Assembly (NCBI RefSeq): GCF_001310085.1
Contig: NZ_CP012643.1
Location: 4,222,001-4,286,000 of the forward strand
DNA from: Rufibacter tibetensis
GTDB lineage: Bacteria; Bacteroidota; Bacteroidia; Cytophagales; Hymenobacteraceae
Length of the DNA: 64,000 nucleotides
Direction of reading: 5' to 3'
A program made the translations under genes and the position numbers. Numbering within the stretch: the stretch's first letter is position 1; every line of letters starts with the position of its first letter. Under the pieces are notes generated by a model. It was not told where the DNA came from, did not search any database, and saw nothing but the letters and a program-made list of their open reading frames with translations. Below, piece by piece: positions 32,243 to 39,919 of the stretch.

Positions 32243-32427
32243 AATCTTACCAATATAGGATGAAGCTCTGTTTTGAAGAACTACCCCAAAGCACACCATA
32301 CTTTGGAAAGTTTTCTAAATTCCTGAATATACGGGTGAAGCAAAACAAGGGGTTTCTCAAATCCTGTTGCTGTAGCGCAAACTGGGGAGTAAACCTGAGG
32401 AAGGAATATAAGGAGAGGGAAAATAAA

Positions 32428-32818
32428 AAATCAGCAAGCCTGTAAGCCGGGTTTTGTCCTCTGCCAAATGGCAAATGGCTTATCATTTATCTAGACCCAT
32501 CCTCACGGAGGGGCTCCATCAACCTACCCGCTGACATCGGACGAGCAGCCCTTAGCCTCTCCCAAAGGAAAGGCGCTGTCAGCCTATTTGGTCTTTCAAC
32601 TCCTGAGGTTTACCCAGCCGGACTAGTTGCCTAGCCGCTGGTGCGCTCTTACCGCACCTTTTCACCCTTACCGGCAAAACCGGCGGTACTTTTCTGTGGC
32701 ACTGGCTGTCACCTGGCTGTCGCCCGCCAGGTGCCTTCCCGTTAGGAAGCAGGATGCTCTGCGTTGCCCGGACTTTCCTCCCCGCCCGAAGACGCAGCGA
32801 TAAGCCAGCTTGCTGATT
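32428..32818 (-). ncRNA. rnpB: RNase P RNA (bacterial type A)
   Basis: On the minus strand the conserved blocks of RNase P RNA are plain. The 5' side has GGCGGGGAGGAAAGTCCGGG, the middle has the P15-like CTTACCGGCAAAACCGGCGG complement and GGTAAGGGTGAAAAGGTGCG, and the 3' side has ACAAAACCCGGCTTACAGGC. The two ends (AAATCAGCAAGC and GCTTGCTGATTT) pair as helix P1. The length, about 390 nt, fits. It is the catalytic RNA for tRNA 5' maturation. The exact ends are estimated from P1 and the promoter. Confidence 0.95.
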
Positions 32819-37151: not shown

Positions 37152-38093
37152 CTAATAGTGCAGCGCGTGCATTTTCCAACCTTTTCGGCCATTGTACTCC
37201 AACGCAGGGGCTGGGAACTTGAAAATGGACAGAACATAGAAGGCGCTCCGCAGGAATTTGCTTTGGGTAGGAATGGCTTGCCAGTTGAGGTCCACGCTTA
37301 GATAATACTGTCGGTAGGCCTCTAAGCCAATGGTTCGGTTGGTATCTGGGTCATTGAACACCATTTCCTCGGCCCCGTACCCCACAGCCGGGTTCAGCCA
37401 TTTGGGGAATCTGCTTTGTGAAGGGAGAAATTTGGCCAGGTTCACACTAATCCAATAGGTTTGCCCATTGTAGTCTTTCAGAAACTCCTGAGAAGCACCG
37501 TTGCCCAGCACGTTAGGCCGAAGCGGCGCATAACGGGTGCGGTGAAAAGAATATTTAGGGATAAGCCGGTTCTCGCCCCATGCCAGTTGCTGGCCTATGA
37601 CAGCAAGAGAACCGGCGGCATTGGCGGCAATGTCTGAAAGGGAGGCCCCATAGGCAGGGGAGCGGCCGTCAAAATATTCTATGGGCGTTTGCAGCACAAA
37701 GCCTAAGGCGCCGCCGTACCAGATGCCTTTATTTTCCGGTACTCCCGCTTTTAGTAACAAATCCACGCCCAGTCGGCTTTCATGAAAGGCCCCCCAGAAA
37801 TGGCCTGCTTTATCCATTTGCTTCCATTCCTTTGAGTCATCAAACCAATGAAAGGAGGTGCGGTCTTTTTCCTTGTACCAAGCCTCGTTCAGCAGGGCCA
37901 ATCCGCTGATGTATACGGCGGCTCCTCCGGCGGCATACCAGGGAAGACGTCGGCTGAACCTGTTCACCGAATCCTGGCCAATCCCTGTTTCTAGGGTATA
38001 GGTAGATTGTGCCTTCGCCCCAAATGAAAAGGGCCCTGCCAGAAAGAAGAGCAGCGGAAGAAGAAGTCTGATGAGGAAGGTTCTGGTCAGCAC
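37152..38093 (-). CDS. DUF2279 family protein
   Basis: The 313-residue protein has a signal peptide (LTRTFLIRLLLPLLFFLAGP, cleavage near FGAKAQ). It shows a hydrophobic turn (WYAAGGAAVYISGLALL) and the DUF2279 core: DKAGHFWGAFHESRLGVDLL, GGALGFVLQTPIEYFDGRSP, YGASLSDIAANAAGSLAV. The family is found in envelopes of Bacteroidota and Proteobacteria (YfiM-like) and is predicted to be a membrane or periplasmic helical protein; no activity is established. Its start faces the trp leader region, so it and the trp operon share a divergent promoter area of about 105 bases. Confidence 0.87.
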   Translation of the reverse strand: MLTRTFLIRLLLPLLFFLAGPFSFGAKAQSTYTLETGIGQDSVNRFSRRLPWYAAGGAAVYISGLALLNEAWYKEKDRTSFHWFDDSKEWKQMDKAGHFWGAFHESRLGVDLLLKAGVPENKGIWYGGALGFVLQTPIEYFDGRSPAYGASLSDIAANAAGSLAVIGQQLAWGENRLIPKYSFHRTRYAPLRPNVLGNGASQEFLKDYNGQTYWISVNLAKFLPSQSRFPKWLNPAVGYGAEEMVFNDPDTNRTIGLEAYRQYYLSVDLNWQAIPTQSKFLRSAFYVLSIFKFPAPALEYNGRKGWKMHALHY

Positions 38094-38164
38094 AGAGTAA
38101 ATGTACGTAATGTGCCCTCTTATTGTCTAGTTTGAGGAAAATGTATATTTTTTCTGCCCTTTTC

Positions 38165-38194
38165 TTGCAATTCATTTTCTGGCCCCTACATTTG
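38165..38194 (+). promoter_or_regulatory. promoter of the trp operon (TTG-N19-TACATTTG)
   Basis: TTG at 38165-38167 and TACATTTG at 38187-38194 are 19 bases apart, a good Bacteroidota promoter. The first leader ATG lies only four bases after the -7 box, so the leader peptide mRNA would be leaderless or nearly so. Confidence 0.7.
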
Positions 38195-38198
38195 CAAC

Positions 38199-38252
38199 AT
38201 GAACAAGACGCAATTCACGCACAATGCCTGGTGGCACACACATCAAAACTGA
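38199..38252 (+). CDS. trpL: trp leader peptide 1 (17 aa, Trp-Trp)
   Basis: The frame reads MNKTQFTHNAWWHTHQN and stops at 38250-38252. Adjacent Trp codons lie at 38229-38234. A 10-bp antiterminator strand starts one base after the stop codon. The peptide has no features of a functional protein and fits the role of a control peptide that senses tryptophanyl-tRNA. The symbol is assigned by analogy with enteric trpL. Confidence 0.8.
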   Translation: MNKTQFTHNAWWHTHQN

Positions 38253-38253
38253 T

Positions 38254-38325
38254 GGGTGAACCGCTTGCTGTGCAGAAATGCAGTTTAATACAAGGCTCGG
38301 ATTCACCCGGGCCTTTGGTGTTTTT
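38254..38325 (+). promoter_or_regulatory. trp attenuator 1
   Basis: Terminator: AAGGCTCGG (38292-38300) pairs with CCGGGCCTT (38307-38315, one T-G pair), followed by a T-rich tail with TTTTT at 38321-38325. Antiterminator: GGGTGAACCG (38254-38263), right after the first leader stop, pairs with CGGATTCACCC (38298-38308, one bulged A). The two structures share bases and exclude each other. Confidence 0.65.
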
Positions 38326-38357
38326 AATGCGTCCAGAATCAATACATAAAAGAAAAA

Positions 38358-38417
38358 ATGAAGCAGGTAATCTCTACCGGAATGAATTGTTGGTGGCACC
38401 AGTCGGAAGATTCGTGA
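38358..38417 (+). CDS. trpL: trp leader peptide 2 (19 aa, Trp-Trp)
   Basis: The frame reads MKQVISTGMNCWWHQSEDS and stops at 38415-38417. Adjacent Trp codons lie at 38391-38396, in a TGGTGGCAC block shared with leader 1. An internal Met (38382) would give an 11-residue variant. Its stop codon overlaps the first base of the second antiterminator strand. Confidence 0.78.
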   Translation: MKQVISTGMNCWWHQSEDS

Positions 38418-38496
38418 ACAGCAGGCCATTGCCTACCCAAAACTTGCCTATACTATAAAAGGCTTGCTGTTCAACCTAAACAGCAAGCCTTTTTTT
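38417..38496 (+). promoter_or_regulatory. trp attenuator 2
   Basis: Terminator: GGCTTGCTGTT (38461-38471) pairs with AACAGCAAGCC (38479-38489), extended by A-T pairs, and seven T residues (38490-38496) follow. It ends ten bases before the trpE ATG. Antiterminator: AACAGCAGGCC (38417-38427), at the end of leader 2, pairs over all 11 bases with the terminator 5' arm (one G-T pair). This is a complete control switch. Confidence 0.82.
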
Positions 38497-38506
38497 ATTC
38501 GTTTTT

Positions 38507-39919
38507 ATGAAGACCTACACCTTACAAACGCAATACCGCCAACTCTTAGCTGACACCGTAACGCCGGTGGGCATTTACCTGCAACTCCGCGATAAATACC
38601 GCAATTGTCTCCTGCTGGAAAGCTCAGACTACCATGGCCACGAAAACAGCTTCACTTACATCTGCTGCGAACCCATTGCCGAGTTCAGGCTCAAAGACAG
38701 TTTGCTTCGCCAAACCTACCCGGACGGAACGGTAGAGGAGCAGGAATTGACGCAGAAGCGCGATGCCGTGCAAATGCTCCAAACGTATTGCGAGTCATTT
38801 AAATCTGAGCCGGGCCCCTTCGGGTTTATCCAGAATGGGTTGTTTGGGTACATGTCGTTTGAGGCGGTGCAGTATTATGAGACCCTGAACCTACGGGAGA
38901 AAGATACGGCGCACGAAGACATGCCCGAGATTTTGTACCAGGCGTTCCGGTTTGTCATTGCCATAGATCACTTCAAAAACGAACTGTACATTTTTGAGCA
39001 CTCTTTTGGAAATGAGCCCCAAAACGATGGCCTTGATGAACTGGAAACCCACATCCGGAACAAGAACTTCCCGGCCTTTCATTTCTCCACCTCCGGTGAG
39101 GAAACCACAAACCAAACAGATGAGGAATTTCTGCGGGTCATTGAAGAAGGCAAGCGCCACTGCCACCTGGGCAATGTGTTCCAGATCGTGTTGTCGCGGC
39201 GGTTTTCGCAGGCGTTTCAAGGCGATGAGTTCAACGTGTACCGCGCGTTGCGTTCCATCAACCCTTCGCCGTACCTGTTCTACTTTGACTACGGCAACTT
39301 TAAAATTTTCGGCTCTTCGCCAGAGGCCCAGCTGACTATCAAAAGCGACACCGCTACCATTTACCCTATTGCGGGCACTTTCAAACGTACCGGCAACGAC
39401 CAGAAAGATGCTGAGCTGGCGCAAAAGCTATACGATGACCCGAAGGAAAACTCAGAGCACGTGATGCTGGTGGACCTGGCCCGTAACGACCTCAGCCGCC
39501 ATGGCGATCAGGTAAAAGTGGAGGTTTTCAAAGAGGTGCAGTACTACTCGCATGTGATTCACCTGGTGTCTAAAGTGACGGCCCAATTGCCGCAGGCGCA
39601 CGGCTCCATTCAGATGGTCGCTGACACATTTCCGGCAGGTACGTTATCCGGGGCACCTAAGCACCGGGCCCTTACCCTGATAGATGAATTGGAGCCTACC
39701 GGCCGCGGGTATTATGGTGGCTGCATCGGGTACCTGGGTTTCGGGGGTGATTTCAACCATGCCATTATGATCCGCTCGTTCCTGAGTGTCAAAAATAAAT
39801 TGTATTTTCAGGCGGGGGCAGGCGTGGTGGCAAAGTCAGACACGGTCAGCGAACTTAATGAAGTGCACCATAAATTAGCCGCCCTGCGCAAGGCTTTGGA
39901 AAAAGCCGCTACTATTTAA
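38507..39919 (+). CDS. trpE: anthranilate synthase component I
   Basis: The 470-residue protein makes anthranilate from chorismate and ammonia supplied by TrpG. The N-terminal domain has LLLESSDYHGHENSFTYICC; its LLES motif is the tryptophan feedback site. The catalytic domain shows GNVFQIVLSRRFSQAF, SPYLFYFDYGNFKIFGSSPE, IYPIAGTFKRTGNDQKDAEL, HVMLVDLARNDLSRHGD, and AGTLSGAPKHRALTLIDELE, all standard. It is the first enzyme gene of the trp operon and lies directly behind the tandem attenuators. The short stretch between it and trpG (100 bases) shows no structure. Confidence 0.95.
   Translation: MKTYTLQTQYRQLLADTVTPVGIYLQLRDKYRNCLLLESSDYHGHENSFTYICCEPIAEFRLKDSLLRQTYPDGTVEEQELTQKRDAVQMLQTYCESFKSEPGPFGFIQNGLFGYMSFEAVQYYETLNLREKDTAHEDMPEILYQAFRFVIAIDHFKNELYIFEHSFGNEPQNDGLDELETHIRNKNFPAFHFSTSGEETTNQTDEEFLRVIEEGKRHCHLGNVFQIVLSRRFSQAFQGDEFNVYRALRSINPSPYLFYFDYGNFKIFGSSPEAQLTIKSDTATIYPIAGTFKRTGNDQKDAELAQKLYDDPKENSEHVMLVDLARNDLSRHGDQVKVEVFKEVQYYSHVIHLVSKVTAQLPQAHGSIQMVADTFPAGTLSGAPKHRALTLIDELEPTGRGYYGGCIGYLGFGGDFNHAIMIRSFLSVKNKLYFQAGAGVVAKSDTVSELNEVHHKLAALRKALEKAATI

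What the first reader, a model, noticed from the sequence alone, without database searches (positions are those of the whole stretch)
38165..38507. Tandem trp attenuators with two Trp-Trp leader peptides in a Bacteroidota
Between the promoter and trpE the sequence shows two separate leader peptides (MNKTQFTHNAWWHTHQN at 38199-38252 and MKQVISTGMNCWWHQSEDS at 38358-38417). Each has adjacent Trp codons followed by His, its own downstream terminator (38292-38325 and 38461-38496) and its own antiterminator strand at or just after the leader stop (38254-38263 and 38417-38427). The second antiterminator pairs over all 11 bases with the terminator 5' arm. Stalling at the Trp codons would free the antiterminator strand; finishing translation would cover it. 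This is the enteric trp logic, but doubled in series. Two checkpoints in series could sharpen the response to tryptophan shortage. I know of no description of tandem ribosome-mediated trp attenuators in Bacteroidota.
Basis: partly seen in the sequence, partly recalled or inferred. Interest (0 to 1): 0.93.

Follow-up and report, generated by a model that had tools for sequence, protein, structure and literature searches.

The report
Two tryptophan attenuators in series
In this bacterium (genus Rufibacter) two complete tryptophan-sensing switches of the classic ribosome-stalling type appear to sit one after the other in front of the tryptophan-making genes, an arrangement kept across the genus and also seen in two distantly related bacteria.

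Summary
Both Trp-Trp-His leader ORFs, both antiterminator strands and both terminator-like hairpins are at the stated coordinates, ahead of trpEGDCFBA and a DAHP synthase gene. All 15 of 16 held genomes of the genus (Rufibacter) that have this trpE keep both modules. With the transcript cut at region 3, a ribosome at the Trp codons lets 2:3 form in 15 of 15 for both modules; one at the stop codon prevents it. Single Trp leaders with terminators are common in Cytophagales and fit the known Bacteroid-trp idea (RF01692), so trp attenuation in Bacteroidota is not new. The doubling appears to be: in my survey it occurs otherwise only in Fulvivirga marina and one Flammeovirgaceae MAG. L1 resembles single attenuators of part of the sister genus, L2 the common Cytophagales type, so this is no fresh copy. 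L1 is probably almost leaderless, its U-tract is weaker, and its helices show conservation more than covariation. No transcript data exist here. Verdict: real, a new variant of a known kind.

The parts
38165..38167 (+). TTG, candidate -33 element
   Evidence: TTG starting exactly 22 bases before TAnnTTTG in 15 of 15 genus loci; that this is a -33 element is recalled
38187..38194 (+). TACATTTG, candidate -7 element (TAnnTTTG type of Bacteroidota)
   Evidence: TAnnTTTG exactly 4 bases before the leader-1 ATG in 15 of 15; none between the leader-1 Trp codons and trpE in any of the 15; motif named as Bacteroidetes promoter in PMC6414381 (passage)
38199..38252 (+). leader peptide 1 ORF (MNKTQFTHNAWWHTHQN), probably on a (nearly) leaderless RNA
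38229..38237 (+). Trp-Trp-His codons of leader 1 (stall site; CAC is the start of region 1)
   Evidence: TGGTGGCAC invariant in 15 of 15
38235..38258 (+). L1 helix 1:2 (protector), 9 pairs with bulges
   Evidence: 95.6% of cells paired, 1 of 9 pairs with a change on both sides
38254..38263 (+). L1 region 2, antiterminator strand GGGTGAACCG
   Evidence: pairs with 38298-38308; 98.0% of cells paired over 15 genomes, nearly invariant
38263..38271 (+). GCTTGCTGT in the L1 loop, identical to 38462-38470 in the L2 terminator 5' arm (unexplained)
38292..38325 (+). L1 terminator: stem 38292-38300 / 38307-38315, then TGGTGTTTTT
38358..38417 (+). leader peptide 2 ORF (MKQVISTGMNCWWHQSEDS), A-rich stretch before ATG
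38391..38399 (+). Trp-Trp-His codons of leader 2
   Evidence: TGGTGGCA invariant in 15 of 15
38397..38416 (+). L2 helix 1:2 (protector)
   Evidence: 88.3% of cells paired, 4 of 7 pairs with changes on both sides
38416..38427 (+). L2 region 2, antiterminator strand, begins inside the stop codon
   Evidence: 12 bp with 38461-38472; 95.0% of cells paired
38423..38434 (+). small hairpin AGGC-CATT-GCCT in the L2 loop
   Evidence: 86.4% of cells paired, no pair counted with changes on both sides; at the closing pair 3 not paired and 1 gapped of 15 as aligned
38457..38496 (+). L2 terminator, 15 pairs counting A-T pairs with the first Ts of a T7 tract
   Evidence: 98.7% of cells paired, one pair with changes on both sides
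38507..39919 (+). trpE (regulated gene, first of trpE-G-D-C-F-B-A and a DAHP synthase to 46443)
   Evidence: Pfam PF04715 and PF00425; downstream PF00117, PF00591, PF00218, PF00697, PF00291, PF00290, PF00793

Best explanation
Two complete ribosome-mediated transcription attenuators, both reading Trp-tRNA(Trp), lie in series on one transcript in front of the trp operon. Within each: if charged tRNA(Trp) is short, the ribosome on the leader ORF waits at the Trp-Trp codons, covers region 1, leaves region 2 free to capture region 3 as it is transcribed, and RNA polymerase passes. If Trp is plentiful, the ribosome reaches the stop codon, covers region 2, and region 3 pairs with region 4 to terminate. 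RNA polymerase must pass L1 and then L2 to reach trpE, so read-through should multiply. Shown by sequence: anatomy, conservation, helices, predicted switching. Inferred: that both hairpins terminate in the cell, that both ORFs are translated, that the effects multiply, and that L1 is started on a nearly leaderless RNA while L2 is started internally.
For: Both leaders in 15 of 15 genus loci; TGGTGGCA of both invariant. L2 1:2, small hairpin and 3:4 together have 5 pairs changed on both sides, reached by 0 of 500 shuffles; 2:3 helices 98.0% and 95.0% paired. Transcript cut at region 3, RNA masked up to 13 bases past the start of the A-site codon: ribosome at the second Trp codon gives 8.8-9.9 expected 2:3 pairs for L1 and 7.1-12.0 for L2 in 15 of 15; at stop 0-0.9 and 0-1.4. 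E. coli trpL control: 10.5 stalled; at stop 5.0, 4.6 and 0.5 with masks of 10, 13 and 16. Shuffles 0 of 1000 for each window module. One promoter motif before L1, none later, in 15 of 15. The operon is trp; no Pfam TrpR in the genome, while the same search rings in E. coli and B. subtilis of 14 controls. Doubling also in Fulvivirga marina and a Flammeovirgaceae MAG; in their four modules, with regions picked by hand, the stalled ribosome gives 6.3-8.4 pairs and the stop state 0 in three and 3.6 in one.
Against: No transcript, 3'-end, reporter or footprint data. Equilibrium folding of the whole module shows the terminator in nearly all stalled states, so the model needs co-transcriptional order. 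L1's U-tract is weak (TGGTGTTTTT here; GGCGTTTAATAG in L017, which fails a loose terminator rule). L1's 1:2+3:4 covariation is not beyond shuffles (2 double changes, 49 of 500); neither 2:3 helix covaries inside the genus. For L2, slid controls also reach 5 and 7 double-change pairs, though with only 42% and 40% of cells paired. Without any ribosome the L2 antiterminator is predicted to form in 7 of 15 genomes including the window, so L2 may fail open.
Confidence: 0.82

Rival explanations
1. Only L2 is a working attenuator; L1 is a leaky or decayed one kept for another reason, such as ribosome spacing or RNA stability.
For: L1 terminator tail is weak and interrupted; L1 3:4 shows little covariation. 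L2 is the type common in the family (R2 model 32.4-60.3 bits in 6 of 6 g3 loci searched).
Against: L1 leader, WWH codons, 2:3 and the 3:4 core are nearly invariant over 15 genomes with TrpE down to 81% identity, and loci of the sister genus have one WWH attenuator that, in 4 of 6 searched, scores better with the L1 model.
Confidence: 0.2
2. The two modules answer to different things: L1 to Trp-tRNA and to whether translation starts at all (it fails closed), L2 mainly to Trp-tRNA (it fails open in some species).
For: Without a ribosome L1 has 0.7 or fewer expected 2:3 pairs in 14 of 15 (L016 4.0), while L2 has 6.4-11.9 in 7 of 15. L1 ATG is 4 bases after the -7 motif, L2 ATG is internal.
Against: L2's default is not conserved across the genus (8 of 15 predicted closed, 0-2.4 pairs); secondary-structure energies only.
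Confidence: 0.2
3. The modules talk to each other: GCTTGCTGT in the L1 loop, identical to part of the L2 terminator 5' arm, pairs with L2 region 2 or region 4.
For: 9-base identity in 9 of 15 genomes and 8 bases in 1, each reached by 0-1 of 2000 plain shuffles.
Against: 7 bases in 3 genomes (12-17 of 2000) and 5 in 2 (267 and 556 of 2000); no compensating change seen.
Confidence: 0.07
4. Coincidence: small ORFs and hairpins without function.
For: None beyond the lack of experiments.
Against: Conservation in 15 of 15 genomes, shuffles, and the same layout in a distant clade.
Confidence: 0.02

Closest known systems
Bacteroid-trp RNA, Rfam RF01692 (Weinberg et al. 2010, PMC2864571; table row seen)
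   Same: Leader upstream of trp genes of Bacteroidota with Trp-rich short ORF and terminator; rings before trpE in 5 of 5 Flavobacteriaceae loci among the 20 sources scanned.
   Different: Single in those loci. The model does not ring at gathering score in the window, in L003 or in the other 14 non-Flavobacteriaceae loci scanned, nor up to E = 10 in window 38090-38560.
Enteric trp attenuator, Rfam RF00513 Trp_leader
   Same: Adjacent Trp codons, 1:2, 2:3 and 3:4 helices in the same order, stop codon next to region 2; E. coli trpL behaves alike when stalled in the same calculation.
   Different: Single. The L1 stretch 38223-38320 scores 19.1 bits against a gathering score of 41, so not a member by the model. 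E. coli also has TrpR; none found here.
Salmonella mgtCBR leader (Lee and Groisman 2012, PMC3641672; passages read)
   Same: Two translated short ORFs in series in one leader, each coupled to attenuation.
   Different: There the two answer different signals (ATP and proline), and the authors call it a singular example; here both carry Trp-Trp and each has its own terminator-like hairpin.
Tandem riboswitches, e.g. metE leader of B. clausii (described in a PMC3641672 passage)
   Same: Two sensor units in series, with two expected terminators.
   Different: Direct sensing by RNA, and two different ligands, rather than a translating ribosome.

Membership tests
Ribosome-mediated (enteric-type) trp attenuator, as a mechanism | Short ORF with adjacent Trp codons before trpE | tested here: met
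   both ORFs in 15 of 15
Ribosome-mediated (enteric-type) trp attenuator, as a mechanism | The ORF is translated and the ribosome stalls at Trp codons when Trp is short | not testable with these tools
   no footprint data
Ribosome-mediated (enteric-type) trp attenuator, as a mechanism | Mutually exclusive 1:2/2:3/3:4 helices placed so that a stalled ribosome frees region 2 and a finishing one covers it | tested here: met
Ribosome-mediated (enteric-type) trp attenuator, as a mechanism | Intrinsic terminator that ends transcripts when Trp is plentiful | not testable with these tools
   terminator-like stems present; no transcript data
Rfam RF01692 Bacteroid-trp | Reaches gathering score of the model | tested here: not met
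   no match in the window at gathering or up to E = 10 in 38090-38560
Rfam RF01692 Bacteroid-trp | Trp-rich leader plus terminator upstream of trp genes in Bacteroidota | tested here: met
Rfam RF00513 Trp_leader | Reaches gathering score (41 bits) | tested here: not met
   19.1 bits for 38223-38320
Tandem attenuators (mgtCBR kind) | Two translated ORFs in one leader answering two different signals | tested here: not met
   both ORFs carry Trp-Trp-His in 15 of 15; signals themselves not measured

The most novel reading that the evidence does not exclude
A two-stage checkpoint with unlike stages: L1, started on an almost leaderless RNA, fails closed when no ribosome loads, and L2, started internally by a second ribosome, fails open in the window species. 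Together they would read both Trp-tRNA charging and translation initiation, giving a steeper and better-gated response than any single attenuator; by parsimony the doubling changed state three times on the TrpE tree, so it may be a recurrent design in Bacteroidota.
Probability: 0.2. Interest if true: 0.8.

Novelty: new variant of a known kind. Interest (0 to 1): 0.62.

Why it matters
Attenuators are usually described as single switches. Two in series reading the same charged tRNA, kept across a genus and present in a distant clade, make a natural test of whether serial termination steps sharpen a response or lower its noise. The survey also suggests that trp attenuation is far commoner in Bacteroidota than the one Rfam model shows.

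Tried and rejected
Equilibrium folding of whole modules did not separate the ribosome states; replaced by transcripts cut at region 3. The first E. coli control, used badly placed regions (2:3 at 7.6 in the stop state) and is not relied on; redid it.

Scanning 295 Bacteroidia genomes with RF01692 for doubled hits gave 14 genomes with E at most 0.001 (10 over the cut-off), each with one hit; strict filters were used and the model is too narrow here. The L2 model over the own genome gave 18 hits (150 of 2714 candidates scored): the element itself (136.5 bits), its own other strand (35.9), and 16 of 35.0 bits or less; the four of these held as loci (L281-L284) have no TGGTGG within 470 bases of the locus centre, the other 12 were not looked at. 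A second L1-model hit in G003 (36.4 bits, L287) has no TGGTGG on its strand.

Survey corrections: loci flagged as doubled by the first script but dropped on reading were L031, L156 and L158. A looser terminator rule applied to 25 loci with an extra W ORF flagged L213 and L031 only; in L213 the tail has no T run right after the stem, in L031 the extra ORF looks like the tail of another gene. Five Rufibacter loci (L003, L008, L009, L011, L017) were counted single because their L1 stem is followed by a short gap before the T run; the looser rule finds two in 14 of 15, missing L017. The orientation check flagged 49 loci because fetched stretches carry one base more; read in the right frame none of L149-L248 has an early stop. 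The Phe/Tyr ORF in the sister genus shows no clear terminator in the three loci printed (which stopped with an error on the fourth of four loci). One search stopped with a script error and was redone.

Full report
What is there. Before trpE (38507) stand two modules. L1: leader ORF 38199-38252 with Trp-Trp-His at 38229-38237, helix 1:2 at 38235-38258, antiterminator strand 38254-38263, terminator stem 38292-38315. L2: leader ORF 38358-38417 with Trp-Trp-His at 38391-38399, helix 1:2 at 38397-38416, antiterminator strand 38416-38427, terminator 38457-38493. The genes that follow are trpE, trpG, trpD, trpC, trpF, trpB, trpA and a DAHP synthase by Pfam. No Trp repressor family protein was found in the genome; the same search rings in 2 of 14 controls, E. 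coli and B. subtilis.

Conservation. Of 16 held genomes of the genus, 15 have this trpE at E at most 1e-150, and all 15 keep both leaders, starting at -292 to -317 and at -147 to -150 from trpE (in L012 the script lists a longer second ORF, with an ATG at the usual place inside it). TGGTGGCA is invariant in both. The 16th genome (G010) has no such trpE and no hit to the L1 model. In L004 and L005 the second leader has a third Trp codon and, by a one-base deletion, a later stop.

Helices. On the 15-sequence alignments the L2 structure (1:2, a small hairpin, 3:4) pairs in 94.1% of cells and has 5 pairs with changes on both sides, a number reached by 0 of 500 shuffles; four of the five are in 1:2. 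Slid controls gave 5 (slide -1) and 7 (slide -3) such pairs, but with only 41.8% and 40.4% of cells paired. L1's 1:2+3:4 pairs in 89.9% of cells with 2 double changes, reached by 49 of 500 shuffles, so it is conserved rather than shown by covariation. The 2:3 helices pair in 98.0% and 95.0% of cells and hardly vary, with no double change, as expected of strands that must pair with two partners. Across lineages the 2:3 partners differ together: GGGTGAACCG with CGG(A)TTCACCC in Rufibacter L1, GAACAGC with GCTGTTC in L2, GAACG with CGTTC and GAACAC with GTGTTC in other tandem carriers (read by eye, not tested statistically). The conserved His codon is explained: CAC is the 5' end of helix 1:2, pairing with GTG.

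Switching. I folded transcripts that end at region 3, masking RNA up to 13 bases past the start of the A-site codon. With the ribosome at the second Trp codon, 2:3 forms in 15 of 15 genomes for both modules (8.8-9.9 and 7.1-12.0 expected pairs). At the stop codon it does not (0-0.9 and 0-1.4). With no ribosome, L1 region 2 pairs upstream instead (2:3 at 0.7 or less in 14 of 15; L016 4.0), whereas L2 forms 2:3 in 7 of 15 (6.4-11.9), the window among them, and not in the other 8 (0-2.4). For the window, with masks of 10, 13 and 16 the L1 stop state gives 2.3, 0.7 and 0; with 8 it is ambiguous (5.8). E. coli trpL gives 10.5 stalled and 5.0, 4.6 and 0.5 at stop for masks of 10, 13 and 16. Dinucleotide shuffles: 0 of 1000 for each module. 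Whole-module equilibrium folds show the terminator in nearly every state, so the order of transcription matters.

Promoter. TAnnTTTG lies exactly 4 bases before the leader-1 ATG, with TTG starting 22 bases before that motif, in 15 of 15, and no TAnnTTTG follows between the leader-1 Trp codons and trpE. The motif is named as the Bacteroidetes-specific promoter sequence in PMC6414381 (passage); the -7 and -33 numbering is recalled. This implies that leader 1 begins on an almost leaderless RNA and that L2 is on the same transcript. In Flavobacterium psychrophilum 5.5% of the mRNAs examined were leaderless (PMC9723704, passage).

Distribution. I read the region upstream of trpE in 274 loci, mostly Cytophagales, which fall into 220 groups when loci sharing a 60-mer are merged; 201 of the 220 have at least one W-rich short ORF by a loose rule and 19 have none. 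In the earlier, stricter count (236 stretches after removing exact duplicates) a W leader with a terminator was found once in 194, twice in 15 and not in 27. After the corrections listed under Tried and rejected, two modules occur in the 15 Rufibacter loci, in Fulvivirga marina (L075 = L147) and in Flammeovirgaceae UBA1842 (L076 = L148), and in no other locus read. All 28 loci read from the family of F. marina list one W leader, L147 not being among them. On a TrpE tree of 76 rows that I chose, the tandem label needs three changes, and well-supported branches force three. The tool warns that three changes may be one gain and two losses; the carriers lie in two distant clades, and F. marina's nearest row (L249) has a single leader. 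So at least two origins are likely, three possible.

Origin. Covariance models of L1 (R1) and L2 (R2) were run on 67 sources. Among six sister-genus (g4) loci R1 beats R2 in four (L018-L020: 42-46 against 24-26 bits; L114: 35.4 against 20.4) and not clearly in two (L021 28.0 against 26.6, L022 24.8 against 26.6). Among six g3 loci of the same family R2 gives 32.4-60.3 bits, while R1 gives 13.0-22.8 in four and lists no match for two (L032, L209). So the Rufibacter pair probably joins two long-diverged types, and the sister genus may have lost L2. In F. marina both modules score alike with R2 (45.3 and 45.9; R1 23.3 and 29.6), which looks like a more recent duplication. The first module of UBA1842 scores well with both (41.0 and 44.6).

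What is known. Bacteroid-trp (RF01692) is a Rfam family from Weinberg et al. 2010 (PMC2864571; I saw the table row). A F. psychrophilum paper likens it to the E. coli trp leader and notes it before the trp operon there (PMC6414381, passages); strong clues for leader-peptide attenuation before amino-acid operons were reported in that species (PMC9723704, passage). RF01692 rings before trpE in five of the 20 loci scanned, all five Flavobacteriaceae, and in 14 of 295 Bacteroidia genomes, far fewer than carry such leaders in my survey. Tandem attenuators in print: of 14 papers holding 'tandem attenuator' I read passages of four; one is the Salmonella mgtCBR paper, with two different signals, called singular by its authors (PMC3641672), and three others mention Mg transporter leaders or cite it; the other ten were seen as a listing only. 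Searches for tandem or double attenuators with trp, leader peptide or Bacteroidota terms showed no trp case in the lists returned (the lists of 58 and 65 were cut at 20 of 44 and 30 of 136). Subscription papers, including comparative studies of attenuation cited in PMC4833913, could not be searched.

Verdict. The structure is real and conserved; that both modules are trp attenuators is highly likely; that they act as two gates in series follows from their order but is unmeasured. New variant of a known kind.

Noticed in passing
L054:1391-1464 (Xanthocytophaga flavus): A tRNA-Trp (CCA) gene lies between the single trp attenuator and trpE, so the attenuator may also govern tRNA-Trp supply (the only tRNA in 29 loci scanned).
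   Followed up: partly
L018 (-234 to -186), L019 (-132 to -84), L020 (-121 to -76), L113 (-135 to -87), before trpE: In 4 of 8 loci of the sister genus (g4) a conserved short ORF ending FRTNYYW(Q/R)G stands between the single WWH attenuator and trpE, in three of them near the L2 position; it may be a decayed or retuned second leader.
   Followed up: partly
window 38263-38271 and 38462-38470: GCTTGCTGT in the L1 loop equals part of the L2 terminator 5' arm in 9 of 15 genomes, fading in the others; possible cross-pairing or chance.
   Followed up: partly
trpE upstream regions of many Cytophagales loci: Single W-rich leaders with terminators before trpE are common (194 of 236 stretches by script) though RF01692 rings in few; a broader RNA family may be waiting to be described.
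   Followed up: partly
window 32427-32816, minus strand: Bacterial class A RNase P RNA, 270.7 bits.
   Followed up: no
G010: One same-genus genome has no trpE of this kind and no L1 hit: perhaps a tryptophan auxotroph or an assembly gap.
   Followed up: partly
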